A DNA stretch of 64,000 nt, from the NCBI GenBank assembly GCA_902384585.1, contig CABMCJ010000004.1, positions 634,086 through 698,085 of the forward strand. The letters are read 5' to 3'. The notes under the pieces are model-generated. The model had not been told where the DNA came from. It worked only from the letters and a program-made list of their open reading frames with translations, and ran no database searches. Source of the DNA: Candidatus Anstonella stagnisolia (GTDB lineage: Archaea; Micrarchaeota; Micrarchaeia; Anstonellales; Anstonellaceae). Each line of letters begins with the position of its first letter. Within the stretch, counting starts at the first letter, position 1. This document shows positions 12,320 to 50,186 of the stretch, piece after piece. The position numbers and the translations under genes were made by a program.

Positions 12320-12565
12320 CTAGGTGAGGATTTTCATCGAGGTGTCGCGGATGAGCACTGCGGCGCCCGCTATTGCAGCCACTATTATGCCGCCGATTAG
12401 CATTGCAAGCGCTGCTGTTTGCCATTTCCCGCGCTGTTCGCCCGGCTGCGTTTGCGCAACCCCGTACACTATGCCGCCGAGGACTATCAGTATCACGGAG
12501 ATTATGGGGGCTATGTTTGAGAGGATAGTTTGCCAGGAAGAAAGCAGGGTTTCAACGTATGCCAA
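12320..12565 (-). CDS. Two-helix membrane protein, VirB2/CedA1-like candidate subunit
   Basis: About 81 residues. Two hydrophobic helices (IAPIISVILIVLGGIVYGVA and AALAMLIGGIIVAAIAGAAV) are joined by a short polar loop (QTQPGEQRGKW), the layout of VirB2/TrbC pilins and of CedA1. The TTG at 12565 follows GGTGGTG at ribosome-binding distance, and GTG at 12571 is an alternative. The longer open frame overlaps the upstream gene. It follows the four-helix membrane gene by 37 bases and lies near VirB6-like and VirB4-like genes, which supports a transfer-machine role (inference). Confidence 0.6.
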   Translation of the reverse strand: MAYVETLLSSWQTILSNIAPIISVILIVLGGIVYGVAQTQPGEQRGKWQTAALAMLIGGIIVAAIAGAAVLIRDTSMKILT

Positions 12566-12602
12566 TTGCACCACCTTTTTGGCTGCAAACTGGGGCTTGC
12601 CC

Positions 12603-13166
12603 TTATTGCAGCTTTGTCTGCATCTGTTTTTGCTGCTCCCTTTTTGCAAAGAAAACGCTCACTGCAACCGCGCCAACAAGGGAGAGCAGGACGCACAGGA
12701 ATACCATTATGAGGGACAGTATGATGTTGAAAAGCGCGCCGCCCACAAGCGAGCCAAACGGCTTCTGCCCGAAGAAGTATGCCGCCACCATAATGATTGC
12801 AGCCGCAAGGGAGCCAAACAGGCCCGCAAGCGCGCCCACGACTGCGCCATCCGACTTTTCAATGGGCTCCTTTGAGAACTTGTGCAGCGCGAATGCACTT
12901 GCACCGCCCCCAAGAACAGGGAAAATGCATACTATCGGAAGGAACAGGAACGTGAGGAACTGCGTGCCTGAAAGGAGCATGTTTGGCACTGATGCAACCA
13001 GGAGGAAAACAGCAATGAGGATTGCGCCGGGGATTGAGCAGCCTGCAACGAGCCCGAGGTGGTGCAATTGCTCTTTTTTGAGAAGATCGGCAGGATTTGG
13101 GACAGGGGAATGCGCCTTTTGGGCGGCTTTGGCGTCTTTTTTTGCCTTTTCCTTCTCTGAGTTCAT
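12603..13166 (-). CDS. Polytopic membrane protein of the transfer-like cluster
   Basis: 187 residues from the ATG at 13166. A Lys/Ala-rich cytoplasmic start (MNSEKEKAKKDAKAAQKAHS) is followed by four hydrophobic helices (about 45-66, 71-97, 110-135, 145-172) and a Gln/Lys tail. Upstream starts are ruled out because they lie on the TATA element at 13211. The family was not recognised. It is co-directional with the VirB2-like gene and separated by 37 bases. It may be an accessory membrane subunit. Confidence 0.65.
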   Translation of the reverse strand: MNSEKEKAKKDAKAAQKAHSPVPNPADLLKKEQLHHLGLVAGCSIPGAILIAVFLLVASVPNMLLSGTQFLTFLFLPIVCIFPVLGGGASAFALHKFSKEPIEKSDGAVVGALAGLFGSLAAAIIMVAAYFFGQKPFGSLVGGALFNIILSLIMVFLCVLLSLVGAVAVSVFFAKREQQKQMQTKLQ

Positions 13167-13210
13167 AATACCGCGTGGATTACTTCGGAAGCGTTTAAAA
13201 CCCTTGCGCC

Positions 13211-13220
13211 AAATATATAC
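13211..13220. promoter_or_regulatory. Near-symmetric TATA element between divergent genes
   Basis: AAATATATAC reads as a TATA box on both strands. On the minus strand the expected start falls near 13188, giving a short leader for the membrane gene at 13166. On the plus strand it falls near 13240, giving a leader of about 17 bases for rpoK that carries an AAGGTG ribosome-binding site. Confidence 0.45.
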
Positions 13221-13256
13221 CATTCTGGGTTAGATTCCGTACTTTAAGGTGTAGAT

Positions 13257-13424
13257 ATGATGAACTTGAGCAAATACGAAAATGCGCGCATAATAGGCGC
13301 GAGGGCAATGCAGCTTGCAAACGGCGCGCCGCCGCTTATTGAGGTTTCGCCATCCGCAAGCGCGATAGAGGTTGCATCCGCAGAGCTTGACGCAGGGATA
13401 ATACCCCTTGTTGTCCTTAGGTAA
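13257..13424 (+). CDS. rpoK: DNA-directed RNA polymerase subunit K (omega homologue)
   Basis: 55 residues. The sequence begins MMNLSKYENARIIGARAMQL and ends LDAGIIPLVVLR. This is the RpoK/Rpb6/omega core, with the K-Y-E-x-A-R-I-I-G-A-R-A-x-Q motif and the C-terminal G-x-I-P-x-x-V-x-R. RpoK helps to clamp and assemble the largest polymerase subunit. It is short, with no N-terminal acidic extension, as is usual in archaea. ATG at 13257 or 13260 follows AAGGTG. It lies on the opposite strand inside the transfer-like cluster, apparently as an unrelated single gene. Confidence 0.92.
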   Translation: MMNLSKYENARIIGARAMQLANGAPPLIEVSPSASAIEVASAELDAGIIPLVVLR

Positions 13425-13426
13425 GG

Positions 13427-14311
13427 CTACTTGAGGAACGGCGCTTTTGAAAGCGCGATTTCCCCAAAAGTGCTATTCTGCAAAAGAAGCACCCTTTTTT
13501 CCGCATCAATAAATGCGATGCCTGCGGGCTTGCCCTGCACGCTTATGGATATTTTGTAGGCGTCCCGCCCAAGGATTTTTTCCATTGAAACATACGCATA
13601 CTCAAGGCGCGTGGTGTAATTTATGCCCAAGCTTTTCTCAGTTACAGTGGTATTTATGCCCCAAACCCAGCCTTCCTTCACTGCGAGCATCCAGGGGGAA
13701 AAAAGGTAGAACGCGCCATCCTGGGTTGTGCTCATGCCGCTTTTCATCCCGCCAACCGCGTTGCCGTTTTTCCCTATGCAAAGCTGGCTTTTGTCCTCGC
13801 CTATTATGAGGTAGCCCGCGCACGATGGGACCTGCACCACAGCATAATGCACATGCACAGGCGTGCCGTTTGAATCCATGGAATACGCGTATTCGCCCTG
13901 CGCAAGGGAAAGCTGCGCTACCTTGGCAAGCGGCTCTTCTGATACGCTCGTTTCAAAAGAAGGGGGCTTTGCCGTGAGGAAGAAATACCCAAAAAAGAGC
14001 AGGTAAAGCGCGGCGGATGCAAGGAATATGCGGACATAGACATTGGAAAGCATGCCTTCTTTTTTTGCAGGCTGCGCAGCCTGGGCTTCTTCGGGTTTCT
14101 TTTTTTGGGCATATGAAAAAACCTTGCCCGCAAACGCCCCGAGCTCCTCTTTTATGCCGTGCTTTTTTCCCTCTTCGCTTCGCATCTGCTGGCGGCTTTG
14201 CGTTGAGAATGCAAGCCAGCTTTCTGACATTGCGTCCCTGCACATGAGGTACACAAGCACCGAGAGCATGCCGACTGAGGCAAGCAGGATGCCTACTAGA
14301 GTGATGTCCAT
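13427..14311 (-). CDS. Membrane-anchored protein with an extracellular domain
   Basis: About 294 residues from the ATG at 14311 (MDITLVGILLASVGML). One N-terminal membrane helix is followed by a basic cytoplasmic stretch (SRQQMRSEEGKKHG), a second membrane helix (about 90-115, VRIFLASAALYLLFFGYFFL) and an outer domain of about 180 residues with N-x-T/S sites (NGT, NTT, NYT, NST) and two Cys. The two-helix, large-ectodomain plan could fit a VirB8- or VirB10-like role, but no sequence motif shows it. Its start region overlaps nothing; dcd is 26 bases upstream in the same direction. Confidence 0.65.
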   Translation of the reverse strand: MDITLVGILLASVGMLSVLVYLMCRDAMSESWLAFSTQSRQQMRSEEGKKHGIKEELGAFAGKVFSYAQKKKPEEAQAAQPAKKEGMLSNVYVRIFLASAALYLLFFGYFFLTAKPPSFETSVSEEPLAKVAQLSLAQGEYAYSMDSNGTPVHVHYAVVQVPSCAGYLIIGEDKSQLCIGKNGNAVGGMKSGMSTTQDGAFYLFSPWMLAVKEGWVWGINTTVTEKSLGINYTTRLEYAYVSMEKILGRDAYKISISVQGKPAGIAFIDAEKRVLLLQNSTFGEIALSKAPFLK

Positions 14312-14336
14312 TTTGTCCACTTCTTTTTGCCCGCTT

Positions 14337-14855
14337 CTATTGTTTTTTCGCAATGCTCCCAAAGAGCGCATAGGGCTTTGTGCTTCGCGTTTCGAGCCTC
14401 TCAAAAACAACCTGCGAAATCTTCATCCCCTCTTTTATGGTGATTGCAAACGGGGCGAAATTCACTATTTCAAGCACCTGGTGGTTGCTGGAACCCGGCT
14501 GCACAAGCGAGCTTGTTATGTGCACTGCCAAGCCCATGCGCGCGTAGCGGCTTCGCCCTTCAAGAGAACCCATTATGTCGGGGGGAAGCGTTATTTTTTC
14601 CTTTGTGATGCCAAGGCACATTTCACCCGGTTCCAGTGTGATGCTCTTTTGGCGCACTTCCTTTGTTGCCTCCCGAAAACCCAGGCGGGAGAGGTCCACT
14701 GTTTTTCCCTGCAAATCGTCCTTGAAAACCCAGAATTTTGAGTCAAGGGTTAGGTCCACTCCTGCTGCGCCTATGTCCTCCTCTTTTGGCATTGGCTCTA
14801 TTTGCAAATGCCCTTTCTTAAGAAGCCTCTTTATGTCCTCGTTGGAGAGAATCAT
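14337..14855 (-). CDS. dcd: dCTP deaminase family protein (possibly bifunctional dCTP deaminase/dUTPase)
   Basis: 172 residues. The start MILSNEDIKRLLKKG is the standard Dcd N-terminus. The trimer and active-site region reads GRSRYARMGLAVHITSSLVQ, then PGSSNHQVLEIVNF with the probable catalytic Glu, then EGMKISQVVFE. It converts dCTP to dUTP, or directly to dUMP in the archaeal bifunctional form; sequence alone does not decide. Its start codon overlaps the divergent ATG proposed for the membrane gene at 14854. Its role in nucleotide metabolism appears unrelated to the transfer-like genes. Confidence 0.88.
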   Translation of the reverse strand: MILSNEDIKRLLKKGHLQIEPMPKEEDIGAAGVDLTLDSKFWVFKDDLQGKTVDLSRLGFREATKEVRQKSITLEPGEMCLGITKEKITLPPDIMGSLEGRSRYARMGLAVHITSSLVQPGSSNHQVLEIVNFAPFAITIKEGMKISQVVFERLETRSTKPYALFGSIAKKQ

Positions 14856-15879
14856 GAAAACCGAGGTAATAACCTCAGTTAAGCTTATAGCAGTTGTCTT
14901 TGAAATTTTTTGGAGGGATATTTTGCAGCCAGCCGGCGGCGAATACACTGCTTCTTTGCTCGTTATTCTAATTTCAATACTGCTTGGTGGGATTGCACTC
15001 GGGGTAGGGCATGCGTTCGGGCTGAAAAAACTCTCGCTTTTTGGGAAAGAGGAGCTTGCGCAGGCGATAATAAGCTCCGCGCTTTTGGGCGCGCTTGCGC
15101 TCATTGTTGCAGGATTGAGCACGGGGGCAGTTGCATTTGGCGCAAAAGGAGGGTGTTATGGGGCTGCGGATGCGCCCGTGATAGATTTTGCTGCGTGCAA
15201 TATGAGGGAAATTTCAAATTCCGCCCTGAACATTTCGCAGCTTGCGTACAAGGCAAGCGCAATAAGCGGGTTTGCGGGGAGCTTGCGCATAAACATCGGG
15301 ATTGCGAGCACGCAGCCGTTTGCATCGCTTTCGCAATCCTCAGGGGAGCTTTTTAGGATGGGCTCGAACTTTTCGCTCCTCTATGCGATAGGCTCTTCGT
15401 GGGAAAGCATTCTTTTGCTCATTTCTGCAAAAGCGCTTACTGTTTTCTTCCCAATAGGGCTTTTGCTTCGCTCGTTTTTCGCAACAAGGAAAGCAGGGGC
15501 TGCGATAATGGGATTGTGCGTCTCGCTTTTTGTTTTCCTGCCGATTTTCCTTGCGGCGTTTTACACTTCCTTTGAGGAGGCGGATTATTTTGCAGCAGCA
15601 CAGGGGGCGCTGAGGGGGTACGATGAAAGATTTTCCTTCCTGCCGCAAATAGACTTGGAAAAAGAGAACTCGCTGAAAAGCGCGATAAATTCGCTTGCAG
15701 AGGGGGACTTTGCATCGCAGACGGATATGCTGTTTGCGCCAATGAGCGCGTATCTTGGCGTTGCGTTCGACTTGCTTGTTTTGTACCCGGTTATTTCGCT
15801 TTTGCTTTCACTTGTGTTTGCGCGGGAGCTTTATGTTGCGCTTGGGGGCTCGCTGCAGTTCTTCTGGAGGGATGCGTGA
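14854..15879 (+). CDS. Polytopic membrane protein, VirB6/CedA-like candidate
   Basis: 341 residues from ATG 14854. About six hydrophobic segments are visible, including LLVILISILLGGIALGVG, IISSALLGALALIVAGL, ESILLLISAKALTVFFPIGL, AGAAIMGLCVSLFVFLPIFL and the C-terminal VAFDLLVLYPVISLLLSLVF. An outer loop carries two Cys and N-x-S sites. The membrane-channel topology and coupling (ATGA at 15876) to a VirB4-like pair suggest the VirB6/CedA position. The ATG overlaps the dcd start. TTG at 14923 with GGAGGG upstream is a good alternative and would remove 23 residues. Confidence 0.7.
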   Translation: MKTEVITSVKLIAVVFEIFWRDILQPAGGEYTASLLVILISILLGGIALGVGHAFGLKKLSLFGKEELAQAIISSALLGALALIVAGLSTGAVAFGAKGGCYGAADAPVIDFAACNMREISNSALNISQLAYKASAISGFAGSLRINIGIASTQPFASLSQSSGELFRMGSNFSLLYAIGSSWESILLLISAKALTVFFPIGLLLRSFFATRKAGAAIMGLCVSLFVFLPIFLAAFYTSFEEADYFAAAQGALRGYDERFSFLPQIDLEKENSLKSAINSLAEGDFASQTDMLFAPMSAYLGVAFDLLVLYPVISLLLSLVFARELYVALGGSLQFFWRDA

Positions 15880-16670
15880 TGGACAACAAGGCAGTAACGG
15901 TTGCATGCATGTGCGCAGGCGCGCTTTCCCTGCTTTATGCCGCATTTTCATCTTCTGGAATTGCGGCTGCAATTTCCTCGTTTTTCTTTTTCGCATCCCT
16001 TGTTGCGTGGAAGTACGGGTATATCGTGGTGCCGGTGCTTTGCCAGCTTCTTGGGGTAAAGGCAAAAGTCGGGAACATTGAGCTTTCCCCTTCGCAGGAT
16101 GCCGCAATAGAGCAGGATGGGGGCGAATTTGTTGCAAGCGCGTACCTGCGCCTTGAGATAAGCCAGTCGCTGGCTGATAAGGGGCAGGAGGAAGCTGCGT
16201 CGTATTCGCAGGCGTTTGAGCGCGCGCTTTGCTCGATAAAAAACACGTGCCAGTTCTCGCTTCTTGTAACGAACCTGGATTTGCACGATGAGCTTGAGGA
16301 AGTGAAGGCGCGCCGCTCAATGGCTGAAACAAAGCTATCTTCCATGCTTTCTTCAAAGGGCGCAAAAGAGGGCGCGGATGCCGCGCTGTTGAGGAGGGAA
16401 ATTGCGATGTGGAACCGGCTGATTGCAAAGCTGTCGGGGGGCAGCAGGCCGATGAGGGTGCTTTTTTATGCCGTTGCAAGCGCAAGGGGCGCAAGCAGGC
16501 AGGAGGCGCTCTCTAGGCTCTCTGCGCAGGTGCTTGAGATTTCCGCAGTGCTTTCAAGCAGCCTCAAGGTGGACGTGCACCGGCTGCGCGGGGAGCAGAT
16601 TGTGCAGTGCATGAGCCTGGCGCACCGCATACCAACGACAAAAAATGAGATGGAGGGCATGTTTTTCTAG
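15876..16670 (+). CDS. VirB4 N-terminal-half-like membrane protein
   Basis: 264 residues. Two membrane helices at 5-25 and 28-48 are followed by a soluble domain (FVASAYLRLEISQSLADKGQ, a region of helices and strands, and a C-terminal LSAQVLEISAVLSSSLKVDV-HRL segment). This pattern matches the N-terminal domain that precedes the ATPase in VirB4/CedB-type proteins. The ATPase half is encoded separately ten bases downstream. It has no Walker motif itself. The start overlaps the stop of the membrane gene (ATGA). It presumably anchors the ATPase at the membrane. Confidence 0.65.
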   Translation: MMDNKAVTVACMCAGALSLLYAAFSSSGIAAAISSFFFFASLVAWKYGYIVVPVLCQLLGVKAKVGNIELSPSQDAAIEQDGGEFVASAYLRLEISQSLADKGQEEAASYSQAFERALCSIKNTCQFSLLVTNLDLHDELEEVKARRSMAETKLSSMLSSKGAKEGADAALLRREIAMWNRLIAKLSGGSRPMRVLFYAVASARGASRQEALSRLSAQVLEISAVLSSSLKVDVHRLRGEQIVQCMSLAHRIPTTKNEMEGMFF

Positions 16671-16679
16671 GGTGTTTTG

Positions 16680-18140
16680 ATGCTTGCAAAAATAACAAGC
16701 GACCTTGTTGCCGCGCGGCTTTTCTTTTCGCGCCCTCCGGAGCCGCCTCCATCTTTCCTTTGCTCCGCGCCAACGGAGGGCATATACGTGGGGAAAACAA
16801 AACTGATGGGCGTGCCGTTCTTCTGGTCGGCGAAAAAAGTAGTGAACCCGCACATTTGCGTCGTGGGCATTTCGGGGAGCGGGAAATCCTATTTCCTCAA
16901 GTCCTTCCTCACGCGCTGCCGCCTTACGTGGGGCACTAGCGCCCTCATACTTGACTGGGCGGGCGAATATGGGACGTGGGTGAAACAGGCAGGCGGCGTT
17001 GTCGCACACCTTGGGAAAGAATTTGGCATAAATGTGCTGGAGTGCGCAATTGAGAAGAGGCAGGAAAGGAAACGGCAGCTTCTGGATGCGCTTGAGATGC
17101 TTACGGATTTGGGAAAATATCCGGCCCAGAGGATGCTGTGCGCAAATGCCATTGATGAGGCATACAAAAAGGAACGCAAGCCCACGCTTTATTCCGTGTA
17201 CAGGATATTGCTGCGAAAATGCAAAAATGACGACGTGGACGCGCTGCAGGCTGCATACAGGATAGGGGAGATAATAGTTGCGGGGGGAGGGCTTTTTTCC
17301 CCGAAAAAAAGCATCGGGATGGAAGAGCTCACAAGCGGGCTTGTGTGCCTTGATTTGCATTCGCTTCCAAGCGAAAGCGCCCGCTCGCTTATTGCGCTTT
17401 TCACGCTCTCCTTCATAAAAGAGCAGATGAGGGGGCAGGAGTATTCGGGAAGCGGGGTGAAGCTTTGGATAGTTGCGGACGAGGCGTGGAAAATCGCAAG
17501 GGACGAGCGAAGCGACCTCATAAGCATCGTGAGGGAGGGGAGGAAATACAGCTTCGGGCTCATAGTCGCATCCCAAAACCCTACGGACGTGCACAGCGCG
17601 ATTTTTTCCAATGCGGGCACGATGCTTGTCATGCGCCTTGTGCTTGACGAGCACAAGAGATACGTGCAGGAATCGCTTGGATATTCGCGCTATGTTGCGG
17701 ATGCCATTTCTAATTTCTCCGTGGGCGAGGCTGCGGTGCACACGGTGTATGCGAGCGGGGCGGATGCAGGCAGCAGCACGTTCGTGCTTGAAAAAATAGA
17801 CGGGGAAGAGCCGCTTCTGGCAGTCCGGCTTTTGGGTGGTGGCATGGATTTGGAATTTGACAGGGAGAATTTTGTGCGCTCGCTTGTGCGCTTTGGGCTC
17901 ACTGATGCCCAGATTGCCCAGGTGAACGGCGAATTTGAGCGCGCGGACTACGTGCTGGACGTTTTTTCCTTTGTGCGCCTCCTTGAGAAATTCGGCTACG
18001 GCCGCTCGCTTGTTGTATCGTTTTTGCGCGAGCTTGGGATAAAGGATGCGAACATTGCCGGGGTGTACGCGGAGCTTGAGAAGCAAAAAATGGGGATTGC
18101 GGGCGAAAAGATGGCGAGACTGGTGGTGCGCGATGCTTAA
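16680..18140 (+). CDS. VirB4/HerA-like ATPase (DUF87 type)
   Basis: 487 residues. Walker A is G63-S70 (GISGSGKS), preceded by the typical VirB4 entry (GVPFFWSAKKVVNPHICVV). SALILDWAGEYGTW follows as the conserved Asp/Glu strand, and LWIVADEAWKIARDERSDL is Walker B with the VirB4-like A-D-E-A-W. An arginine/glutamine motif region (GLIVASQNPTDV) follows. The C-terminal 110 residues add helical repeats that may bind DNA or partners. It would couple ATP hydrolysis to DNA or protein transfer through the VirB6-like channel. The ribosome-binding site is GGTG, and the next gene overlaps its end by eight bases. Confidence 0.82.
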   Translation: MLAKITSDLVAARLFFSRPPEPPPSFLCSAPTEGIYVGKTKLMGVPFFWSAKKVVNPHICVVGISGSGKSYFLKSFLTRCRLTWGTSALILDWAGEYGTWVKQAGGVVAHLGKEFGINVLECAIEKRQERKRQLLDALEMLTDLGKYPAQRMLCANAIDEAYKKERKPTLYSVYRILLRKCKNDDVDALQAAYRIGEIIVAGGGLFSPKKSIGMEELTSGLVCLDLHSLPSESARSLIALFTLSFIKEQMRGQEYSGSGVKLWIVADEAWKIARDERSDLISIVREGRKYSFGLIVASQNPTDVHSAIFSNAGTMLVMRLVLDEHKRYVQESLGYSRYVADAISNFSVGEAAVHTVYASGADAGSSTFVLEKIDGEEPLLAVRLLGGGMDLEFDRENFVRSLVRFGLTDAQIAQVNGEFERADYVLDVFSFVRLLEKFGYGRSLVVSFLRELGIKDANIAGVYAELEKQKMGIAGEKMARLVVRDA

Positions 18141-18876
18141 ATTAATAGGGAAAAAACAGGGTGCAAAAGACGAGGTTCCACTCGGGTCTTTTTCGCTTTC
18201 CGGCGTGCGCAAAATGAGCCCGCAAAAGCTTGCATACGAGCTCGCAACCCTTGGGTTTGCGTCAATAGAAGAGAAAGGCGACATGCTTGCGGTTTCAATG
18301 GTGCAAGGCGAAGACATTGACGGCAAGCCCCACCTTTTTTTCCGCTATGTTTTCCTGAAAAATTCAATAGAATGCGAATACAGCATCCCAAAGCCTTCAA
18401 GCGCGCAGAGGAGGAAAATGGAATGCCTTCGCGAGCTTCTTGACATATTGTGCGCATGCAACTGCTTTGTGCCAGATGCGCACGGTTTTTTTGCAGCGCT
18501 TTCCGGCATGCTATCCGATGGGTGCGAACTCATAAATGCGGATGTTACCCGCATCTCAAATGCATGCGCAAAGCTTGAGGAGGAAAACGAGGCATTGCGC
18601 AAAAAGTGCGGGCTTTTGCTTGCGTCAAATGAGAAAAACGAGATGGCTGCGCGCGGGGAATCCCTGCGCAATGCAACGCTTGCGGCGCGCGTTGCCAAGC
18701 TTGAGGGAGTGTCATTGCAAACGCTCAGCGAGGAGATTTATGACTGGATACGGACGCACGGGGGGCTTATTGACGTGCGCGAATTTGCGCGCCAGCAGGG
18801 CGTAAGCACTGCGCGCGTTGAGGAAGGCATAGACTATCTTTTGAAGGGTGGGTATATTGGAAGCAAAAGGGACTAG
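18133..18876 (+). CDS. Coiled-coil protein with a C-terminal winged helix
   Basis: 247 residues from the ATG at 18133, which overlaps the stop of the VirB4-like ATPase. The N-terminal 130 residues form a mixed domain (LAYELATLGFASIEEKGDML, then a Cys-containing helix). A coiled coil covers about 145-190 (CAKLEEENEALRKKCG). The end is a winged-helix-like unit (IRTHGGLIDVREFARQQGVS, then VEEGIDYLLKGGYIG). The family was not recognised. Position in the operon suggests DNA binding or ATPase partnering in the transfer-like machine. Confidence 0.6.
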   Translation: MLKLIGKKQGAKDEVPLGSFSLSGVRKMSPQKLAYELATLGFASIEEKGDMLAVSMVQGEDIDGKPHLFFRYVFLKNSIECEYSIPKPSSAQRRKMECLRELLDILCACNCFVPDAHGFFAALSGMLSDGCELINADVTRISNACAKLEEENEALRKKCGLLLASNEKNEMAARGESLRNATLAARVAKLEGVSLQTLSEEIYDWIRTHGGLIDVREFARQQGVSTARVEEGIDYLLKGGYIGSKRD

Positions 18877-42548: not shown

Positions 42549-44147
42549 ATGCGGAAAGGAAATAAATTTGGTGGGCAAGTGGATGCGCAACTGTATGCAA
42601 CGCTTAACAAGGGCTGGAAGTCAACGTGCAAAATACTTTTTGGAAAGGAAATAGGGGAACTAGAGGGGTATGAGGAATACCTTTCTGAATATCTGCCGCC
42701 ATCTGCAAAAAGAAAATCGCTCATAAGCGGCAAAAATGTGATAATAGCGAAGGACAGCTATCCGAAGAACGCACGCTTTATTTCAGAGGATGAGCTTACT
42801 ACGAACAAAAACTATGCGCTTTCCATAAACGACATAAAGGACATGGACTCGCTGGTGAGAGCGCTTGGGGAGAATGCGGAATACACTGGAAACCGCTTCC
42901 TTGGGAACTCCGCGTTTGTGAGCGAATCGGACATTGTGCTTGATTCCCAGTACGTGCACAACAGCACGAACATTGAGCAGTCAACGTATGTGTATTCCTC
43001 TTATATGATGCGCAGGGGGAGCAAATATTCGTATGGAAGCGGCTGGACTGCTGCCGGGGAATTTGTTGTGCGCTGCGTTGCAGGCATAAACCTGCGCCGC
43101 TGCATTGAAACCCATTTTGCCGCGGATTGTTCGGATGCTTACTTCTCGTTTGACTGCCATGGGTGCAATGATTTGCTCTTTTGCTTTGGGCAGAGAAGCA
43201 AAAGCCACTGTATAGGCAATCTTGCGCTTGCACGGGAAAAATACGCGCAAATAAAGCAAAAGTTGCTTGGGGAGATAGCGGGTGAGCTTGAAAAGAAAAA
43301 GAAATTTCCCTCGCTCTTTGAGCTTGTGCCGAAAATGCCGCCTAAAAATATTCCGAAAATAACGCCATCAATGCCAAAAGACGAAAAAAACATGGCGGCA
43401 ATAGAAAAGGGGTTTTCCGCAACGTATGGGATTATCCTGAAACACCAGCCTGCGAGCATATGCGACTATGAGAAATGGCTTGGGAGGAATACTGTAAGGG
43501 TAGTGCCAGTACCTTCGGTATTTGGAAATGTTACTTACCTTCCGCAGGACTTCCCTGTTTTTCAGCTTCTTCCAAAAAACCGCTTAGTGAACGTTTTTGA
43601 ATCCATTGAGGCAGGAAAAACTTTTAGGGTGGGAGAGCAATCGCTTTCCAGCCTGAATTCTTTGCTTAAGGAGCTGGACAAAATAGCATTTTTCACTGCG
43701 GAATTTTACGATGGGGAAAACCGCAACATTATAGGCGCGCCCCTTGTGCTGCACAGCGCAAATGTGTACAAGGGGTATGAGGCGACTTACTCTGAGCATT
43801 CGGGCTGCACATCGCTTTCACTGCACTCAAAATACGTGTATGGGTGCCACCGCATAATAGATTCGCAATTTTCGCTCAAGTGCTACAATTCGCTTTATCT
43901 GAACCGCTGCCTTGAGCTTGATGGCTGCAACAAGTGCGCGGACTCGTATTTCTGCCACAACTGCGAGGGGCTTACTGACTGCATGTTCTGCTTTAACATG
44001 AAGGGAAAGAGGTTTGCAATCGGGAATACGGATTTGGAAAAAGAAAAATATGCGCAGGTAAAAGAGGCGCTTTTGAAGCAGATGGGGGAGGAGCTTGGGA
44101 AAAAGAAAGAGCTCAAATGGGACATTTACAATATCGGGGCAAAGTAG
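42549..44147 (+). CDS. Duplicated Cys-rich beta-solenoid protein, paralogue A
   Basis: 532 residues, two homologous halves. N half: YATLNKGWKSTCKILFG opening, a repeat zone NSAFVSESDIVLDSQYVHNS, then a Cys-rich strand ladder (DCHGCNDLLFCFGQRSKSHC at 202-221) and IGNLALAREKYAQIKQKLL. C half: AIEKGFSATYGIILKH opening and, from about 470, CHNCEGLTDCMFCFNMKGKR with AIGNTDLEKEKYAQVKEALL and the end KKELKWDIYNIGAK. The Cys pairs suggest metal or disulfide bonds. No catalytic motif or membrane helix is visible. It starts 37 bases after GGGPS and is tail-to-tail with an Lrp-like gene. Function unknown. Confidence 0.8.
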   Translation: MRKGNKFGGQVDAQLYATLNKGWKSTCKILFGKEIGELEGYEEYLSEYLPPSAKRKSLISGKNVIIAKDSYPKNARFISEDELTTNKNYALSINDIKDMDSLVRALGENAEYTGNRFLGNSAFVSESDIVLDSQYVHNSTNIEQSTYVYSSYMMRRGSKYSYGSGWTAAGEFVVRCVAGINLRRCIETHFAADCSDAYFSFDCHGCNDLLFCFGQRSKSHCIGNLALAREKYAQIKQKLLGEIAGELEKKKKFPSLFELVPKMPPKNIPKITPSMPKDEKNMAAIEKGFSATYGIILKHQPASICDYEKWLGRNTVRVVPVPSVFGNVTYLPQDFPVFQLLPKNRLVNVFESIEAGKTFRVGEQSLSSLNSLLKELDKIAFFTAEFYDGENRNIIGAPLVLHSANVYKGYEATYSEHSGCTSLSLHSKYVYGCHRIIDSQFSLKCYNSLYLNRCLELDGCNKCADSYFCHNCEGLTDCMFCFNMKGKRFAIGNTDLEKEKYAQVKEALLKQMGEELGKKKELKWDIYNIGAK

Positions 44148-45143
44148 CTAGTTTTTCACAAAATGTGCGAAGGGATTTGGCGAATACTCCTTGTACACGA
44201 TGAGCGTCTCGTATTCGCGTATCACGTCTGGGAACTCCTTTTTTATCCTGCCAAAAAGCTCGTGGAACTCAACCGAGTTTTTCGCATCAATGCCAAACTG
44301 CATGTCCCATGCGCCCACCATTGAGGAGATGAAAAAGCATTCCGGGAATTCGTTCAGGAAAGAGATGAGCCGCTTTATGCCTTTTTGCTCAGGGTAAAGG
44401 CGCATGAAAATCTGGTTGTGCTGGTATCCGAGCTTTTCGCGGTCAAAATAGCTCTTTACCTGCGTTATCACGCCTTCGCGCATCAGCCTCTTTATCCGAT
44501 AGTGCACTGCATCCGCGGAGAGCTTCACCTTCCCTGCTATTTCAACCGTGGGCATGCGGGCATTTTCGGACAGGATGCCAAGTATGCGCAGGTCTATTGC
44601 ATCGTGCTTCACAACCCCAACGCTTGTTGGGACCTCATGCAAGGGTGATTTCGCCCTTTGTTTCTGGGTGAGCCCGTAAGTTGAGGGCCACCAGGTGTGC
44701 CTAAGCTGCCTTGTGACCTCTTTTTCGCGCACATATTTCCCATAGTGCTCAAGGAAGCGGTCCATTGTTGCGTTGAACTCAAAAGTGTCGTGTGCGCTTA
44801 TGCGCGCTATCACGTCCCATCTGCCGTCGCACAGCCCTATCCACTGGCAGGGCATTTTGTCACGGATGTACTCCACCATTTCCTGCTCTGTTTTCGGGCT
44901 TGTTGCAAAGAACTGCAGGTAAATGCGGTAAGTCCCTATGCCGAGCTTGTCAAAAAGCGGGATTGCAAAGAACTTGCGTATTATGCCGCCCTTGAGGTAT
45001 TGCCTTATGCGGTAATTCACAACCTGCGCTGAAACTTTTGCCTTGCGCGCTATCTGCGCCGAGCTTTGGCGGGCGTCTGTTTCAAGCTCAAGCAGTATTT
45101 TCCTGTCCTTTTCATCCAGTTTTATTGCAATATTTTCCTTCAT
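44148..45143 (-). CDS. Double-HTH Lrp/AsnC-like regulator, divergent from paralogue B
   Basis: 331 residues from the ATG at 45143 (MKENIAIKLDEKDRKILLEL), which a TATA-like CTTTATTAG about 26 bases upstream supports as a leaderless start. HTH 1 covers residues 9-58 (RQSSAQIARKAKVSAQVVNY), HTH 2 about 172-225 (MPTVEIAGKVKLSADAVHYR). Each is followed by an RAM-like half. It is close in plan to the regulators at 10676 and 46858. It ends flush with paralogue A and starts 94 bases from paralogue B, so it probably controls B or itself. Confidence 0.83.
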   Translation of the reverse strand: MKENIAIKLDEKDRKILLELETDARQSSAQIARKAKVSAQVVNYRIRQYLKGGIIRKFFAIPLFDKLGIGTYRIYLQFFATSPKTEQEMVEYIRDKMPCQWIGLCDGRWDVIARISAHDTFEFNATMDRFLEHYGKYVREKEVTRQLRHTWWPSTYGLTQKQRAKSPLHEVPTSVGVVKHDAIDLRILGILSENARMPTVEIAGKVKLSADAVHYRIKRLMREGVITQVKSYFDREKLGYQHNQIFMRLYPEQKGIKRLISFLNEFPECFFISSMVGAWDMQFGIDAKNSVEFHELFGRIKKEFPDVIREYETLIVYKEYSPNPFAHFVKN

Positions 45144-45207
45144 ATTGTAGTAAAGCCGCAAAAACTAATAAAGAAATGCGTTTTTAGCTGAAAAATCGCG
45201 CAAAGCC

Positions 45208-45216
45208 CTTAAATAA
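45208..45216 (+). promoter_or_regulatory. TATA box of paralogue B
   Basis: CTTAAATAA is centred about 26 bases before the ATG at 45238, which implies a leaderless transcript and favours that start over ATG 45223. It lies 65 bases from the start of the divergent Lrp-like gene, a normal distance for operator sites. Confidence 0.55.
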
Positions 45217-45237
45217 GGCTGGATGCATAAGAAACGC

Positions 45238-46842
45238 ATGGAGGGAAAAGGCGGCTCGCAAACTTATGATGCAGTGAACAAGGCGTGGAAGAGCACGTGC
45301 AAGGTGCTTTTTGGAACCGAGGTAGGCGAGCTGGGGGATTTCTCGGAATGGCTCGAGGAATACCTTGAGCAACGCAGGTGCGAAAAGTCTTCAGTTTCCG
45401 GGCAGGATGTGTATTTTTCCGTGCACGACTATGCAAAGGATGCGCAGTTTATTGCTTTTGAAGAAATTGATTTTGGCAAAAAGTTCAAGCCGCTCTCAAT
45501 AAATGAGGTAAAGGACATAGATTCGATTGCACAGGCGGTGGGCGAGAGGGCGCAATACACAGGAAACATTTCACTTGGGAATTCGCACTATGTGCAGGGC
45601 AGCAACAATGTGATAAACGGGAATTTCATATACAACAGCGAGTTCATAAGGGACTCGAAATACGTTGGGCACTCAATATGGGTTACTGACGCTGAATACG
45701 TTTTTGGGATGGGAGGCTGCAGAACCGGCTCGCACACAATGAAATGCATGGGCGGGCAGTACAAGCGGTGCTTTGAGTGCCCTTCTTCGGAATATTTGAG
45801 CGACTGCTACTACTGCCCAAGCGCAAAAAACTGCATTGAGTGCATGTTCTGCTTTGGGGCGGAGAACGGAACGCACATGATAGGGAACATGAAACTTCCG
45901 AAAGACAAGTATGCTGAACTTAAGGCAAAACTGCTTTCTGAAATTGCGCAGAAACTGAAAAAAGACAAGAGAATTTTCTCAGTGTTTGAGCTTCTTGAGA
46001 TTGCGAAGAGGGAAAAGAGGGAGGCAAGCGGAATTAAGATGCCAATTGGAAAGCGCGCTCCCTTTAGCATGGCGCCCATAGAGGAGGCGTTTGAGAAAAC
46101 ATCTTCCATTCTTTTTGGAAAGCCCCTTGTTGGGATGGAGAGATACGGGAAATGGCTGCAAAGGCACATCCCCATGAACGAGTATTTCAGGTCGCCCTTT
46201 ACTGGGGAAGAGGCAATAGTTGCTGGGTATAGGGCGTATCTTACAAGGCAGTTTAACATTGGGGGCAGGCTTCTTCCGGAAATAGAGATACGGGAAATTG
46301 GAAAAAAGGAAATTGATGCACAGAAGCTTGTGGAAGTGGAATTTGAGCCTGAGAGCCTGTGCAGCGTGCTTGGGGAAATCGCATACTCGGACCTTAACAA
46401 GATGTTTGGGAATCTTCTGAATATTTCACATGGCGCAGTGCTTGTGGATGCACAGGACTGCTTTGAAGGAAGCGCGTTCACAAAGTGCAAGAAGTGCGCA
46501 TACTGCTTCTGGCCGGACAGCTCGGAATATGTTTTTGGCTCGCAGATGGCGTGGAAGTCCAGCTTCTGCATAAACTGCTACAATTCCAACAAGCTTACGC
46601 GCTGCTTTGAGGTGGATGCGTCGCAGAATTGTGCGGGCGCATATTTCCTGCACAACTGCGAGAATGTGCAGGACTCGATGTTTTGCTTTAATACGAAGAA
46701 TTTGAGGAATGCGATTGGGAATGCGGAGCTTGCGCAGGAGAAGTATTTGGGCGTGAAAAATGCGCTTTTTGCGCAGATGCATGCGGAACTCGAGAAGAAA
46801 AAGGAATTGAAACTGGATATTTACAATGTTGGCGCAAGGTAG
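45238..46842 (+). CDS. Duplicated Cys-rich beta-solenoid protein, paralogue B
   Basis: 534 residues from ATG 45238 (leaderless, see TATA at 45208). Same plan as paralogue A. The N half opens YDAVNKAWKSTCKVLFGTEV and continues with PLSINEVKDIDSIAQAVGER and the ladder NSHYVQGSNNVINGNFIYNS. Cys cluster one is CYYCPSAKNCIECMFCFGAE. The C half opens EEAFEKTSSILFGKPLVGME, and cluster two is NCENVQDSMFCFNTKNLRNA with IGNAELAQEKYLGVKNALF and KKELKLDIYNVGAR. It is convergent with the next Lrp-like gene, 15 bases apart. Confidence 0.82.
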   Translation: MEGKGGSQTYDAVNKAWKSTCKVLFGTEVGELGDFSEWLEEYLEQRRCEKSSVSGQDVYFSVHDYAKDAQFIAFEEIDFGKKFKPLSINEVKDIDSIAQAVGERAQYTGNISLGNSHYVQGSNNVINGNFIYNSEFIRDSKYVGHSIWVTDAEYVFGMGGCRTGSHTMKCMGGQYKRCFECPSSEYLSDCYYCPSAKNCIECMFCFGAENGTHMIGNMKLPKDKYAELKAKLLSEIAQKLKKDKRIFSVFELLEIAKREKREASGIKMPIGKRAPFSMAPIEEAFEKTSSILFGKPLVGMERYGKWLQRHIPMNEYFRSPFTGEEAIVAGYRAYLTRQFNIGGRLLPEIEIREIGKKEIDAQKLVEVEFEPESLCSVLGEIAYSDLNKMFGNLLNISHGAVLVDAQDCFEGSAFTKCKKCAYCFWPDSSEYVFGSQMAWKSSFCINCYNSNKLTRCFEVDASQNCAGAYFLHNCENVQDSMFCFNTKNLRNAIGNAELAQEKYLGVKNALFAQMHAELEKKKELKLDIYNVGAR

Positions 46843-46857
46843 TTGGTGCTGCCAGCT

Positions 46858-47844
46858 TTATTTTTTCTTCAGGCACTCTTTTTCAAAGAAGCAATATTTG
46901 TGCTCTTGGTAGATGTTAAGCGGAGTGTAGTCGGACACTATGTCATCGAATTTCTCAAGGAAATCGCGCATAAGGGCGCGGAATTCCTCGCCGTTTTCTA
47001 CTTCCACGTCCATTTCGAACTGCCACTGCGCAACAGCCTCCACTGCAAACACTATGTTGGGGTGGTGCTCGCAATAGGAGAGCAGCCGCGCTTCCTTTTT
47101 GGGGTCAAGGTTGTGCAATGAGATAAGCACCTTGTAGTAGAAGCCCTTGAGCGCATTCACATTGGGCCATATTGTGTAGTGAGTCACAATCCCTTCTTTT
47201 TCAAGCCTGCGGATTCTTTGAAGGACCGAGGAGGGGGAAAGCCTGACGCTTTGCGCGATTGCTGCTGCGCTTGCGCGGCTATCCTTGCAGAGGGCATCGA
47301 GCACAAGGGCGTCTTTTTCTTCGAGTACCACTGCGCCCTCTCTGCTGCCCCATTCTATTTTCCGCTCTATTGCACTGCCCTTTTCTGCCAAATAATCGCG
47401 GTAAAAATGGTGTGCGGCTGCGATGGGTGAGATATCCTGCTCAAGGAAATGCATCCAGTATTTTGAGTTTATTTCCTTTAGAACACGCCGTAATTCCAAA
47501 AGAGAGCGGGCTTTTATTGCAAATATTAGGGAATATTCGCCCTCGCAGCTTCCAAGCCAGGTTACAAAGGGGTTGGAGCAGAGGTCCTGGATTAGCTCTT
47601 TTTCCTCTGCTGCGCTTATGTGGCGCATTTTTGCAAATACCTTGTAATGTTCAAAGCCAAGCTTTGACATGTCCACTACTGTGAGAAAATCGCGTATGAG
47701 ACCGCCCTCCTTGTATCTTTTTGTGCGGTAAAGCACGCTCTCGCGCGCAAGCCCTGCTTTTTTTGCTATGCTTGAGAGAGGCTGGCGGCAATCCCTGTCA
47801 AGCTCGTAGAGGATGAGACGGTCTTTTTTGTCCAGTTTGTCCAT
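46858..47844 (-). CDS. Double-HTH Lrp/AsnC-like regulator, divergent from the C-D-E operon
   Basis: 328 residues. HTH 1 begins MDKLDKKDRLILYELDRDCR, with recognition helix around RESVLYRTKRYK. HTH 2 is near 180-235 (EKDALVLDALCKDSRASAAA, then SPSSVLQRIRRLEKEGIVTH). A Cys-containing tail (YCFFEKECLKKK) ends the protein. A minus-strand TATA TTTATATAAA about 24 bases before the ATG implies a leaderless mRNA. It shares a 121-base AT-rich region with the gene at 47966 that heads the C-D-E run. Confidence 0.83.
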   Translation of the reverse strand: MDKLDKKDRLILYELDRDCRQPLSSIAKKAGLARESVLYRTKRYKEGGLIRDFLTVVDMSKLGFEHYKVFAKMRHISAAEEKELIQDLCSNPFVTWLGSCEGEYSLIFAIKARSLLELRRVLKEINSKYWMHFLEQDISPIAAAHHFYRDYLAEKGSAIERKIEWGSREGAVVLEEKDALVLDALCKDSRASAAAIAQSVRLSPSSVLQRIRRLEKEGIVTHYTIWPNVNALKGFYYKVLISLHNLDPKKEARLLSYCEHHPNIVFAVEAVAQWQFEMDVEVENGEEFRALMRDFLEKFDDIVSDYTPLNIYQEHKYCFFEKECLKKK

Positions 47845-47965
47845 GTTTAATGTTTGATGTATTTTTTATATAAATATATGTGTTTTCATTAAATTTTAGC
47901 AAAAAACTTTAATATATAAGATAAGTGGCAAATAAAGAATATATTGTGGTTGAGAGGAAGAGAAA
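47845..47965. promoter_or_regulatory. AT-rich divergent promoter region
   Basis: Contains a minus-strand TATA (TTTATATAAA near 47868) for the Lrp-like gene and a plus-strand TATA (CTTTAATATATAAG, 47907-47920) for the gene at 47966, plus GAGAGGAAGAGAAA as ribosome-binding site. It is visibly more AT-rich than nearly all other gaps in the window. Confidence 0.6.
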
Positions 47966-48556
47966 ATGGCACAAATAAAAGCACTTGTAACCTGCTTCGG
48001 GATGAACGAACGTGCAGAAGCTGTGATTGGAATACGTAAAATATCTTCAGCATTATGCGATGCTGGCTGCACTGTAGAAATAGCGTACACAGCAGATAAG
48101 GCTTACGAGTCGTTCATAAAGAGCATTCAAAGTGGCAAAAAATTTGACTTGGTTGTAATTGGTCCTCATGTTGATGACGGCGATCTCTATCCTCGAGTAG
48201 TTGCGAGCAAGATGAAAGCACTCGACCCAAATATTATAGTTGTTAGCGGATTTTGCCATGACCCGGGTAGCTGCCCTGGATTAAATGTCGTTATAGGGGG
48301 TAGAACTGGTCCTCGTTTTGAGCCACCTCCAACTGGGCTTTTTGACTATTATATTCCATTATCTGAAAACCAGAAACATGAATTGCCCCAGGCAAAGCAG
48401 AATGTGAGCTTTGAAAAATTTCTGGAGCAACTGCCAAATATTCTGGATTCGATTTCCATTGCAAAAGGGCGCAGGGAAAATCTCAGGTTGGCACCTAAAA
48501 AAAGGAAACCGCAGCAGCATACTGCAAAAAAACAGCTGAAGCCCAATGTGATTTAA
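47966..48556 (+). CDS. Receiver-domain-like protein of unknown function
   Basis: 196 residues. The first 125 have a Rossmann-like alternating pattern (IKALVTCFGMNERAEAVIGI, FDLVVIGPHVDDGDLYPRVV, NIIVVSGFCHDPGSCPGLNV) like a response-regulator receiver, though acidic-pocket residues are not all clear. The tail is basic (KGRRENLRLAPKKRKPQQHT). Codon use is more AT-rich than in neighbours, which suggests recent acquisition. It precedes paralogue C by 22 bases and probably shares its transcript. Confidence 0.55.
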   Translation: MAQIKALVTCFGMNERAEAVIGIRKISSALCDAGCTVEIAYTADKAYESFIKSIQSGKKFDLVVIGPHVDDGDLYPRVVASKMKALDPNIIVVSGFCHDPGSCPGLNVVIGGRTGPRFEPPPTGLFDYYIPLSENQKHELPQAKQNVSFEKFLEQLPNILDSISIAKGRRENLRLAPKKRKPQQHTAKKQLKPNVI

Positions 48557-48578
48557 TTCTTCGGGATAAAGTGGTATT

Positions 48579-50186
48579 GTGGAAGAAACGCAGGCATACG
48601 TAGAACTTAACAAGCGCTGGAAGGCAGCATGCCGCATAGTGCTGGGCGGCGAGGTAGGGGAGCTTCTTGAATTTGAAAAATGGCTGGATGAAGCAAACGA
48701 GCCAATGGAGCATTTGCCATCAAGCGTTTCGGGGAAGGAAATCTCTTTTGGCGAGTGCGGGTATGCAAAAGGTTCAAAGAGAATAGGGTTTTCAGAAATA
48801 GATTTTGGAAAGAAATTTGAGCCACTCTCAATAAATGAGATGAAGGATTTGGATTCCGTAGCAGAAGCGGTTGCAGAGAGAGCGTACTATTGCGGCAACA
48901 TAGTGCTTGGGAACTCGAAGTTCGTGGAGCGCTCCTCAAATGTTACGGACTCGTTTTATGTATACAATTCAAGGTTCGTGAGCGACTCGAAATATGCTGC
49001 ATATTGCTCGTACTTAAGATATGCAGAAGATGTTTTTGGGAGCACAAACGACGTGTATTCCAAATTCCTTATAAGGGGGCTTGATACGCACAAGACGCCG
49101 CGCAGCCTTGAGCTTTGCGGCACTTATGTGTGCCCGGACACGTATTTTTCCTCGCGCTGCATGGACTGCCATGACTGCATGTTTTCCTTTAACCTGAAGG
49201 CAAAGGAATACCGGATTGGGAACTTTGCACTTGTGCGGGACAAATACGTGAAAATAAAGGAAAAGCTGCTTGAAGAAATGAGGCAGGAGCTTCGTGCGCA
49301 TAAGAAACTTCCTTCTTTGATAGAAATAGCTGCAAGTTCCAAAAGTTATGCAACAGAAAACCGGAAAATGCTCGCGCAAATAGCAAAGGAAGCTGCGGAA
49401 AAAGGTGAGAAAGAGGATATGGCGCCCATTCAGAAAGCGTTTGAGAAAACAAGCGCAATAGTGCTGGGCAAAAGCCTATGCGAAATGCAAAAATATGAAA
49501 ACTGGCTGCTTGGGCATGTCAAATCCATAAAGACTGGTGCATCTGCTGCAAGCAAAAGGCAGGTATCTATTGGAATGTTCATCCCGTATTGCGATTATCC
49601 TGCGAATATGCTGCTTGGGATAGGAGAGGGATGGAAGGCGGGCGAACTGCTTTCAATCTCGCAGCAGGAGGCAGAGGGAATAAGTTTTGCGAGTGTAAAA
49701 GACAGCATAGGAAAAATAGCATATTTTGTTCCAGAGGCGCGCCTGCGCGAAAATACGAATCTTATAAACACGGCGCTTGGGTATAATTCACAGAATTGCT
49801 ACAAGGGAGGGATTTATTCACAGGCAAAATACTGCGGCTGCTCTTTCTGGCCACGCGAATCCGAGCACATGTTCGGATGCGATACTGCGTTTTCTTCCTC
49901 TTTCTGCCTGCACACATATTTTTCTAATAATATTACGCGGTCTTTTGAGGTAGATGCATCAAGGAACTGCTCTGGCTCGTATTTCCTGCACAATTGCGAG
50001 AACGTGCAGGACTCCATGTTCTGCTTTAATGTGAAGAATTTGAGGAATGCAATTGGAAATGCGGCATTGCCTGCGGACAAGTTCGCTGCAATAAAAAGTG
50101 CTCTTGTTGGGCAGATGCACTCGGAACTGGAGAGAAAGAAAGAGCTAAAAACTGGCATCTACAATATAGGTGCCGGTAGTGTGTAA
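48579..50186 (+). CDS. Duplicated Cys-rich beta-solenoid protein, paralogue C
   Basis: 535 residues from a GTG at 48579 (M-E-E-T-Q-A-Y-V-E-L-N-K-R-W-K). N half: RWKAACRIVLGGEVGELLEF, PLSINEMKDLDSVAEAVAER, ladder NSKFVERSSNVTDSFYVYNS, cluster CMDCHDCMFSFNLKAKEYRI. C half: QKAFEKTSAIVLGKSLCEMQ, CGCSFWPRESEHMFGCDTAF, cluster NCENVQDSMFCFNVKNLRNA, end KKELKTGIYNIGAGSV. Its TAA overlaps the ATG of paralogue D (TAATG), so C and D are translationally coupled. Confidence 0.82.
   Translation: MEETQAYVELNKRWKAACRIVLGGEVGELLEFEKWLDEANEPMEHLPSSVSGKEISFGECGYAKGSKRIGFSEIDFGKKFEPLSINEMKDLDSVAEAVAERAYYCGNIVLGNSKFVERSSNVTDSFYVYNSRFVSDSKYAAYCSYLRYAEDVFGSTNDVYSKFLIRGLDTHKTPRSLELCGTYVCPDTYFSSRCMDCHDCMFSFNLKAKEYRIGNFALVRDKYVKIKEKLLEEMRQELRAHKKLPSLIEIAASSKSYATENRKMLAQIAKEAAEKGEKEDMAPIQKAFEKTSAIVLGKSLCEMQKYENWLLGHVKSIKTGASAASKRQVSIGMFIPYCDYPANMLLGIGEGWKAGELLSISQQEAEGISFASVKDSIGKIAYFVPEARLRENTNLINTALGYNSQNCYKGGIYSQAKYCGCSFWPRESEHMFGCDTAFSSSFCLHTYFSNNITRSFEVDASRNCSGSYFLHNCENVQDSMFCFNVKNLRNAIGNAALPADKFAAIKSALVGQMHSELERKKELKTGIYNIGAGSV

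What the first reader, a model, noticed from the sequence alone, without database searches (positions are those of the whole stretch)
12320..18876. Conjugation- or Ced-like DNA transfer cluster
Within 6.6 kb there are a two-helix small protein like VirB2/CedA1, a four-helix membrane protein, an ectodomain protein, a polytopic VirB6/CedA-like protein, and a VirB4/CedB-like ATPase split in two. The Ced system of Sulfolobales imports DNA and is homologous to conjugation machinery (established for CedA1/VirB2, CedA/VirB6, CedB/VirB4). A related apparatus in a DPANN-like genome without relaxase or mobile genes nearby could serve DNA uptake from hosts.
Basis: partly seen in the sequence, partly recalled or inferred. 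Interest (0 to 1): 0.75.

Follow-up and report, generated by a model that had tools for sequence, protein, structure and literature searches.

The report
Split-motor DNA-transfer-like machine in Micrarchaeota
A tiny, probably host-dependent archaeon carries in its core genome a stripped-down relative of the machine bacteria use to pass DNA between cells, with the motor split into two proteins, and the same genome has two further arrays of exactly six channel genes each, which suggests an undescribed channel built from six different parts.

Summary
The cluster is real. It encodes a VirB2-like pilin, a four-helix membrane protein (TM4), a polytopic VirB6/CedA-like protein (V6), and a VirB4 split into an N-terminal protein (B4N) and an ATPase. 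A further conserved winged-helix protein (P5) follows. V6's predicted fold ranks R388 VirB6 first to third of 975 chains; B4N's ranks R388 VirB4's N-terminal domain first. The ATPase scores best against CedB and CedD but far below their cut-offs. Order-level relatives have V2-V6-B4N-ATPase-P5 as one operon; in the window's family TM4 precedes V2/V6 in all 18 loci read. The "ectodomain protein", rpoK and dcd are bystanders. The class is Micrarchaeia: one relative's single contig has the exact length of the Mancarchaeum Mia14 chromosome. No PF03432 relaxase, PF02534 coupling protein or ComEC was found in the 89%-complete genome. Unexpectedly, the same genome has a second, paralogous system with two tandem arrays of six V6 genes. 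All 12 arrays read in 10 genomes hold exactly six, and slots are orthologous by position. Best reading: a domesticated minimal type IV secretion-like machine, most likely moving DNA; direction and cargo are inferred. New variant of a known kind.

The parts
12320..12565 (-). VirB2/CedA1-like pilin (V2), 81 aa, two TM helices, TTG start aligned with MAYIETLLSSW of relatives
   Evidence: Pfam T4SS_pilin 7e-5 and TrbC 0.004, sub-threshold; directly upstream of V6 in relatives
12603..13166 (-). TM4, multi-TM membrane protein, conserved accessory in the window's family and one more family
   Evidence: immediately upstream of V2 and/or V6 in 18 of 18 loci read; found in 19 of 39 relatives; no family hit above cut-off
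13257..13424 (+). rpoK-like gene (bystander)
   Evidence: own reading of the translation; not tested with a tool
13427..14311 (-). ectodomain protein (bystander, not part of the system)
   Evidence: present in 26 of 39 relatives but at other loci, away from the T4SS-like genes except in the sister species where it is beside dcd
14337..14855 (-). dcd, dCTP deaminase (bystander); its start codon overlaps the V6 start codon head to head
   Evidence: Pfam DCD 2e-38; sequence
14854..15879 (+). VirB6/CedA-like polytopic channel protein (V6); alternative start at 14923 not excluded
   Evidence: AlphaFold model pLDDT 84; VIA-align ranks 1-3 are R388 TrwI/VirB6, Z 8.9-9.4; family profile
15879..16670 (+). 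B4N: TM hairpin plus VirB4 N-terminal domain as a separate protein
   Evidence: AlphaFold model pLDDT 84; best matches TrwK/VirB4 residues 221-373, Z 10.7; directly upstream of the ATPase in most relatives
16680..18140 (+). VirB4/CedB-like ATPase; Walker A GISGSGKS and Walker B DEAW
   Evidence: NCBIfam CedB 1.5e-22, CedD 1e-17, VirB4_CagE 2.4e-11; PDB 4ag5 VirB4 9.5e-15; motif residues invariant in 23 relatives
18133..18876 (+). P5: conserved protein with coiled coil and C-terminal winged helix, start overlaps the end of the ATPase gene
   Evidence: follows the ATPase in both paralogous systems in nearly all loci; winged helix matches CdvB/ESCRT-III 2xvc at 3.8e-4

Best explanation
The cluster encodes a chromosomal, domesticated, minimal type IV secretion-like machine of Micrarchaeia. 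V2 makes a pilus or stalk, V6 (with TM4) forms the membrane channel, and the VirB4 motor is delivered as two proteins: B4N, a membrane-anchored VirB4 N-terminal domain, and a soluble ATPase that docks on it. P5 is probably a cytoplasmic adaptor or DNA-binding partner. By analogy with Ced and Ted it most likely moves DNA, probably importing it from neighbouring or host cells for repair or nucleotide supply. Shown computationally: gene content, conservation of the gene order, VirB6-like and VirB4-NTD-like predicted folds, intact ATPase motifs, failure to find relaxase (PF03432), coupling protein (PF02534) or ComEC homologues in an 89%-complete genome. Inferred: docking of B4N with the ATPase, pilus formation, DNA as cargo, direction of transport.
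For: V6 fold: R388 VirB6 at ranks 1-3 of 975. B4N fold: VirB4 chains are Foldseek ranks 1-4 and VIA rank 1. ATPase nearest CedB then CedD by profile and matched by VirB4 4ag5 along most of its length. Same three-part content as Ced and Ted (VirB2, VirB6, VirB4; PMC9905601), and the VirB4 N-terminal domain is already known to be divided in CedB/CedD (PMC11868833). Operon V2-V6-B4N-ATPase-P5 conserved in other families; TM4 next to V2/V6 in 18 of 18 loci. Within the order the ATPase tree follows the species groups and no viral contig encodes a relative, as expected of a vertically inherited core system. No PF03432, PF02534 or ComEC homologue found in the genome; NurA and a separate HerA candidate are present.
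Against: Foldseek alone gives no significant V6 hit, and Z 9 is inside the caution range for helical bundles. The pilin hits are below curated cut-offs. Nothing shows DNA as cargo; T4SS of host-dependent microbes may move proteins. Curated CedB/CedD thresholds are not met. The genome is a draft (89% complete), so absences are weak. A TrwB-like ATPase does lie in the window (53318-55702), so a coupling protein may exist.
Confidence: 0.6

Rival explanations
1. The same machine exports proteins (or protein-DNA) into the host cell, as proposed for nanohaloarchaea and considered for Patescibacteria; DNA import is not its role.
For: Micrarchaeota in co-culture depend on hosts (PMC5498576, PMC8975820). 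Patescibacterial T4SS and nanohaloarchaeal VirB4-linked giant proteins are proposed to act in the host relation (PMC12102498, PMC10266531). The second system in this genome has V6 proteins with large ectodomains and Cys-rich pilins beside giant surface proteins.
Against: The window's system has no ectodomain extensions, no identified effector and no clear coupling protein; its ATPase is nearest DNA importers.
Confidence: 0.25
2. It is the remnant or active core of a conjugative mobile element integrated in the chromosome.
For: VirB2/VirB6/VirB4 are typical of conjugative elements; a separate locus in the same genome (L035) has a full 1046-aa VirB4 beside Orc/Cdc6-like and restriction genes and looks like such an element.
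Against: Flanked by housekeeping genes (infB, pheT, SRP receptor), composition like its neighbours, found across the order, often next to pheT, no PF03432 relaxase, no viral or close plasmid relatives.
Confidence: 0.07
3. It assembles an adhesive or sensory pilus only, with no substrate transport.
For: Pilin plus ATPase plus membrane platform would suffice for a pilus; T4SS pili can serve attachment (own knowledge).
Against: A VirB6-type channel is kept in the complete operons and is expanded in the second system.
Confidence: 0.06

Closest known systems
Ced system of Sulfolobales (CedA, CedA1, CedA2, CedB, CedD)
   Same: Pilin, polytopic VirB6-like channel, VirB4/HerA-clade ATPase, no relaxase; VirB4 N-terminal domain divided between polypeptides (PMC11868833); ATPase scores best against CedB and CedD.
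   Different: Here one protein is a bare VirB4 N-terminal domain with a TM hairpin and the other a bare ATPase, whereas CedB and CedD each carry part of the N-terminal domain plus an ATPase. Extra TM4 and P5. Scores far below the Ced model cut-offs.
Ted system of Thermoproteales (TedA, TedB, TedC)
   Same: Minimal VirB2/VirB6/VirB4 set in a chromosome, domesticated T4SS (PMC9905601).
   Different: Ted loci commonly include ParA, HerA and in some genera Rad50 genes; none of these is in this cluster. No split of TedB into separate N-terminal and ATPase proteins is described there.
R388 conjugation T4SS (TrwI/VirB6, TrwK/VirB4)
   Same: Predicted folds of V6 and of B4N match TrwI and TrwK residues 221-373 best.
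   Different: No relaxase (PF03432) or PF02534 coupling protein found and no further VirB components recognised; VirB4 is split.
Rickettsiales rvh T4SS
   Same: Several VirB6 paralogues with large divergent extensions and duplicated VirB4 in host-dependent cells (PMC2653234), like the second system of this genome.
   Different: Five VirB6 there, exactly six per array here, in archaea; the window's own system has a single V6. Convergent as far as can be told.
Patescibacteria T4SS and nanohaloarchaeal VirB4/SPEARE system
   Same: VirB4-based apparatus in ultrasmall host-dependent lineages, widespread in Patescibacteria (PMC12102498, PMC10266531).
   Different: Nanohaloarchaea have a giant Ig-domain fusion and a VirB4 with its own N-terminal domain; neither the split VirB4 nor the six-slot VirB6 array appears in the passages read.

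Membership tests
Type IV secretion / conjugation superfamily (VirB2-VirB6-VirB4 core) | VirB4-family ATPase with intact Walker A and B | tested here: met
   VirB4 profiles match; Walker residues invariant. HerA and DUF87 profiles also match, so the ATPase alone does not separate VirB4 from HerA.
Type IV secretion / conjugation superfamily (VirB2-VirB6-VirB4 core) | VirB4 N-terminal domain | tested here: met
   predicted B4N fold matches TrwK/VirB4 221-373, Z 10.7, as a separate polypeptide.
Type IV secretion / conjugation superfamily (VirB2-VirB6-VirB4 core) | VirB6-type polytopic channel | tested here: met
   three TrwI/VirB6 entries rank 1-3, Z 8.9-9.4 over residues 25-334; moderate Z for a helical protein; no Pfam VirB6 hit, Foldseek not significant.
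Type IV secretion / conjugation superfamily (VirB2-VirB6-VirB4 core) | VirB2-type pilin | tested here: inconclusive
   T4SS_pilin 7e-5 and TrbC 0.004, below curated cut-offs; no PDB pilin matched by profile; gene position supports it.
Conjugative (mobile) T4SS | Relaxase and VirD4 coupling protein | tested here: inconclusive
   Not found: PF03432 and PF02534, in an 89%-complete genome; other relaxase families not searched; a TrwB_AAD_bind-like ATPase lies at 53318-55702.
Ced system | CedB and CedD equivalogs | tested here: not met
   CedB 80 bits against cut-off 700; CedD 64 against 600; domain architecture differs.
Ced system | DNA import, induced by DNA damage | not testable with these tools
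   needs a co-culture experiment.
Ced system | CedA1-like pilin and CedA-like channel | tested here: inconclusive
   No NCBIfam Ced model hit for V2 or V6; resemblance is to VirB2 and VirB6 in general; no direct comparison with CedA or CedA1 sequences was made.

The most novel reading that the evidence does not exclude
Micrarchaeia possess two ancient paralogous VirB4-based machines: a minimal one (the window) and an elaborate one whose channel is assembled from six different VirB6-type subunits, one per conserved slot, with large ectodomains and Cys-rich pilins, forming a hetero-hexameric host-contact conduit. Neither a split VirB4 of this design nor a six-slot VirB6 channel was found described.
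Probability: 0.35. Interest if true: 0.9.

Novelty: new variant of a known kind. Interest (0 to 1): 0.72.

Why it matters
How DPANN archaea take up DNA and other material from hosts is an open question. A VirB4-based apparatus conserved over a whole class, including a species with a complete genome that was grown in co-culture with its host (Mia14, PMC5498576), makes it directly testable. The split VirB4 gives a natural two-part version of a motor that is hard to study whole. The fixed count of six position-conserved VirB6 paralogues would, if they co-assemble, reveal the subunit count and arrangement of a VirB6-type channel genetically, and it parallels the five VirB6 genes of the obligately intracellular Rickettsia.

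Tried and rejected
Apparent natural fusion of B4N and ATPase in G017 (L077): a run of X/N joins the two pieces, an assembly-gap artefact. Large ATPase frames in G060 and G069: in G060 (L074) the extra sequence looks like an intein in the Walker A loop, not a domain fusion (own reading); G069 not read in full. Tandem B4N-plus-ATPase model by reading the TAG through: MAFFT aligned the halves wrongly, so B4N was modelled alone. Foldseek alone on V6: no significant hit. V2 and V6 profiles against PDB sequences: no relevant match. Genome-contig scan: one distant clostridial ATPase only. Viral contigs: none. Plasmids: only 23-27% identity VirB4/HerA-like hits. First assumption that TM4 was an unrelated neighbour was rejected. 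The Mia14 785-aa ATPase is not the orthologue of the window's TrwB-like protein. CdvB-like winged helix of P5 is too weak to build on. PADLOC gave only generic HerA-type hits for the ATPase.
Full report
WHAT IS THERE. The window lies at 634086-698085 on contig C4 of a 1.33 Mb, six-contig, 89%-complete genome. A further protein, P5 (18133-18876), overlaps the end of the ATPase gene. rpoK (13257-13424, my reading of the translation) and dcd (14337-14855, Pfam 2e-38) sit between. The V6 and dcd start codons overlap head to head. GC content of the cluster matches its neighbours, and the flanks are housekeeping genes by my reading of the translations (infB upstream; pheT and an SRP receptor gene downstream).

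WHICH ORGANISM. Relatives are unnamed, but genome G110 of the same class is a single contig of 952,257 bases, exactly the published chromosome length of Ca. Mancarchaeum acidiphilum Mia14 (PMC5498576). This identification rests on the length match.

THE MOTOR. The ATPase matches CedB (1.5e-22) and CedD (1e-17) best among NCBIfam models, then VirB4 families, HerA and TraC, all far below equivalog cut-offs. Against PDB sequences its profile finds HerA enzymes and VirB4 4ag5, the latter along most of its length. Walker A GISGSGKS and the DEAW Walker B are kept; their key residues are invariant in 23 relatives. B4N has no sequence-family hit. Its AlphaFold model (pLDDT 84) matches VirB4/TrwK of R388 best: Foldseek ranks 1-4 (E about 0.1, probability up to 0.92) and VIA-align rank 1 (Z 10.7, 149 residues aligned, model 65-249 to TrwK 221-373). 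It starts with a TM hairpin, which may play the part of VirB3 (inference). So the VirB4 motor is split into an anchored N-terminal domain and a separate ATPase. In Sulfolobales the VirB4 N-terminal domain is divided between CedB and CedD (PMC11868833), but each of those also has an ATPase domain.

THE CHANNEL AND PILIN. V6 hits no relevant Pfam family and no PDB sequence. Its model (pLDDT 84) gives the three R388 TrwI/VirB6 entries as ranks 1-3 of 975 chains (Z 9.4, 9.1, 8.9, covering 25-334). The Z values alone would be within the range seen for unrelated helical bundles, and Foldseek alone is not significant; what persuades is that all three VirB6 entries come first, together with the gene context. 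V2 has sub-threshold hits to T4SS_pilin and TrbC/VirB2. It begins MAYVETLLSSW, like its relatives (MAYIETLLSSW), which fixes its TTG start.

CONSERVATION AS A UNIT. In other families of the order, V2-V6-B4N-ATPase-P5 is one compact same-strand operon (L037, L039, L040, L041, L043, L074), several near pheT as in the window. In the window's own family the set is broken up: TM4-(V2)-V6 in one place, ATPase-P5 in another. In all 18 loci read where TM4 occurs, TM4 is directly upstream of V2 and/or V6. In the sister species G001, TM4-V2 lies on one contig and V6-B4N-ATPase-P5 on another. The ectodomain protein occurs in 26 of 39 relatives at unrelated loci and is not part of it.

A SECOND, STRANGER SYSTEM. 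The same genome has a paralogous ATPase with its own B4N and P5 at C4:842 kb (L034). A whole-genome search with the V6 profile found, besides the window's V6, two tandem arrays at C4:560-572 kb and C4:62-70 kb, each of exactly six V6 genes. Some are 876-1126 aa long with large extra domains, and they lie beside giant surface proteins. There are seven V2-like pilin hits, two of them with Cys-rich C-terminal extensions. In ten genomes of the class, all 12 arrays read contain exactly six V6 genes. In the class-level relatives the array is followed by two B4N and the ATPase, usually P5 too, and often preceded by pilins. In a tree of 79 V6 proteins the slots group by position across families: 7 label changes where 6 is the minimum and shuffled labels need 53. 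The V6 of single-copy systems forms its own clade (SH-aLRT 97). The six-slot array is therefore most simply ancestral, with each slot kept distinct. In the ATPase tree the second-system ATPases are one clade (SH-aLRT 100) and the window type is a separate lineage within the order; the Mia14 and G103 single-copy ATPases sit on long branches and their place is unsure.

ABSENCES. Not found in the genome: relaxase PF03432, T4SS-DNA_transf PF02534, ComEC PF03772. Found: NurA and a separate DUF87/HerA-like gene. Beltran et al. propose that HerA-NurA makes the DNA substrate for Ced and Ted (PMC9905601), so the parts for such a scheme exist. A 794-aa ATPase inside the window (53318-55702) matches the TrwB DNA-binding domain (3.7e-12) and could be a coupling protein; it is not linked to the cluster. 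A separate locus (L035) has a full 1046-aa VirB4 with a seven-helix protein, an Orc/Cdc6-like gene and restriction genes, and looks like a conjugative element (neighbours named by my reading). No viral contig encodes a relative of the ATPase, and plasmid matches are only 23-27% identical.

INTERPRETATION. Identity as a domesticated VirB2/VirB6/VirB4 machine is well supported (I would put it near 0.9). DNA transport is favoured by the kinship of the ATPase to CedB/CedD and the Ced/Ted-like minimal composition, but cargo and direction are untested, and export to a host is a serious rival given the Patescibacteria and nanohaloarchaea proposals (PMC12102498, PMC10266531). The five VirB6 genes of Rickettsia (PMC2653234) are a striking parallel to the six-slot arrays in another host-dependent group.

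PRIOR ART. Ten full-text searches turned up no description of VirB6, VirB4 or Ced-like systems in Micrarchaeota among the papers listed. The Mia14 paper mentions type IV pili and likely conjugative elements in genomic islands only. Preprints and most subscription journals were not searchable.

Noticed in passing
L103:6124-18330 and L105:8497-15774 (window genome C4:560-572 kb and C4:62-70 kb): Two tandem arrays of exactly six VirB6-like genes, some 876-1126 aa with large extra domains, beside giant surface proteins (up to 1991 aa). All 12 arrays read in ten genomes have exactly six.
   Followed up: yes
L034:17583-18194 and L034:18833-19999: VirB2-like pilins with long Cys-rich C-terminal extensions, flanking a ribosomal protein L11-like gene; no Pfam hit for the 388-aa one.
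   Followed up: partly
L035 (window genome C4:506-526 kb): Probable integrated conjugative element: 1046-aa VirB4, seven-helix protein, Orc/Cdc6-like and restriction-modification genes.
   Followed up: partly
L074:5055-8132: Sequence that looks like an intein inserted in the Walker A loop of the system ATPase in genome G060; G069 (L075) has a similarly long frame.
   Followed up: partly
window 53318-55702 (-): 794-aa ATPase matching the TrwB coupling-protein DNA-binding domain (3.7e-12) with a long acidic tail; possible coupling protein, not linked to the cluster.
   Followed up: partly
window 42549-53316 (+): Five paralogues of about 440-540 aa (KSSISGKEV-like motif) interleaved with Lrp-type regulators; the two tested have no Pfam hit.
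   Followed up: no
window 18133-18876 and L034:10847-11614: P5 C-terminal winged helix weakly resembles the CdvB/ESCRT-III winged helix (2xvc, 3.8e-4).
   Followed up: partly
L067:11283-11582, L112:2563-2862 and similar: A separate gene of about 100 aa duplicating the C-terminal domain of the ATPase follows it in several class-level relatives.
   Followed up: no
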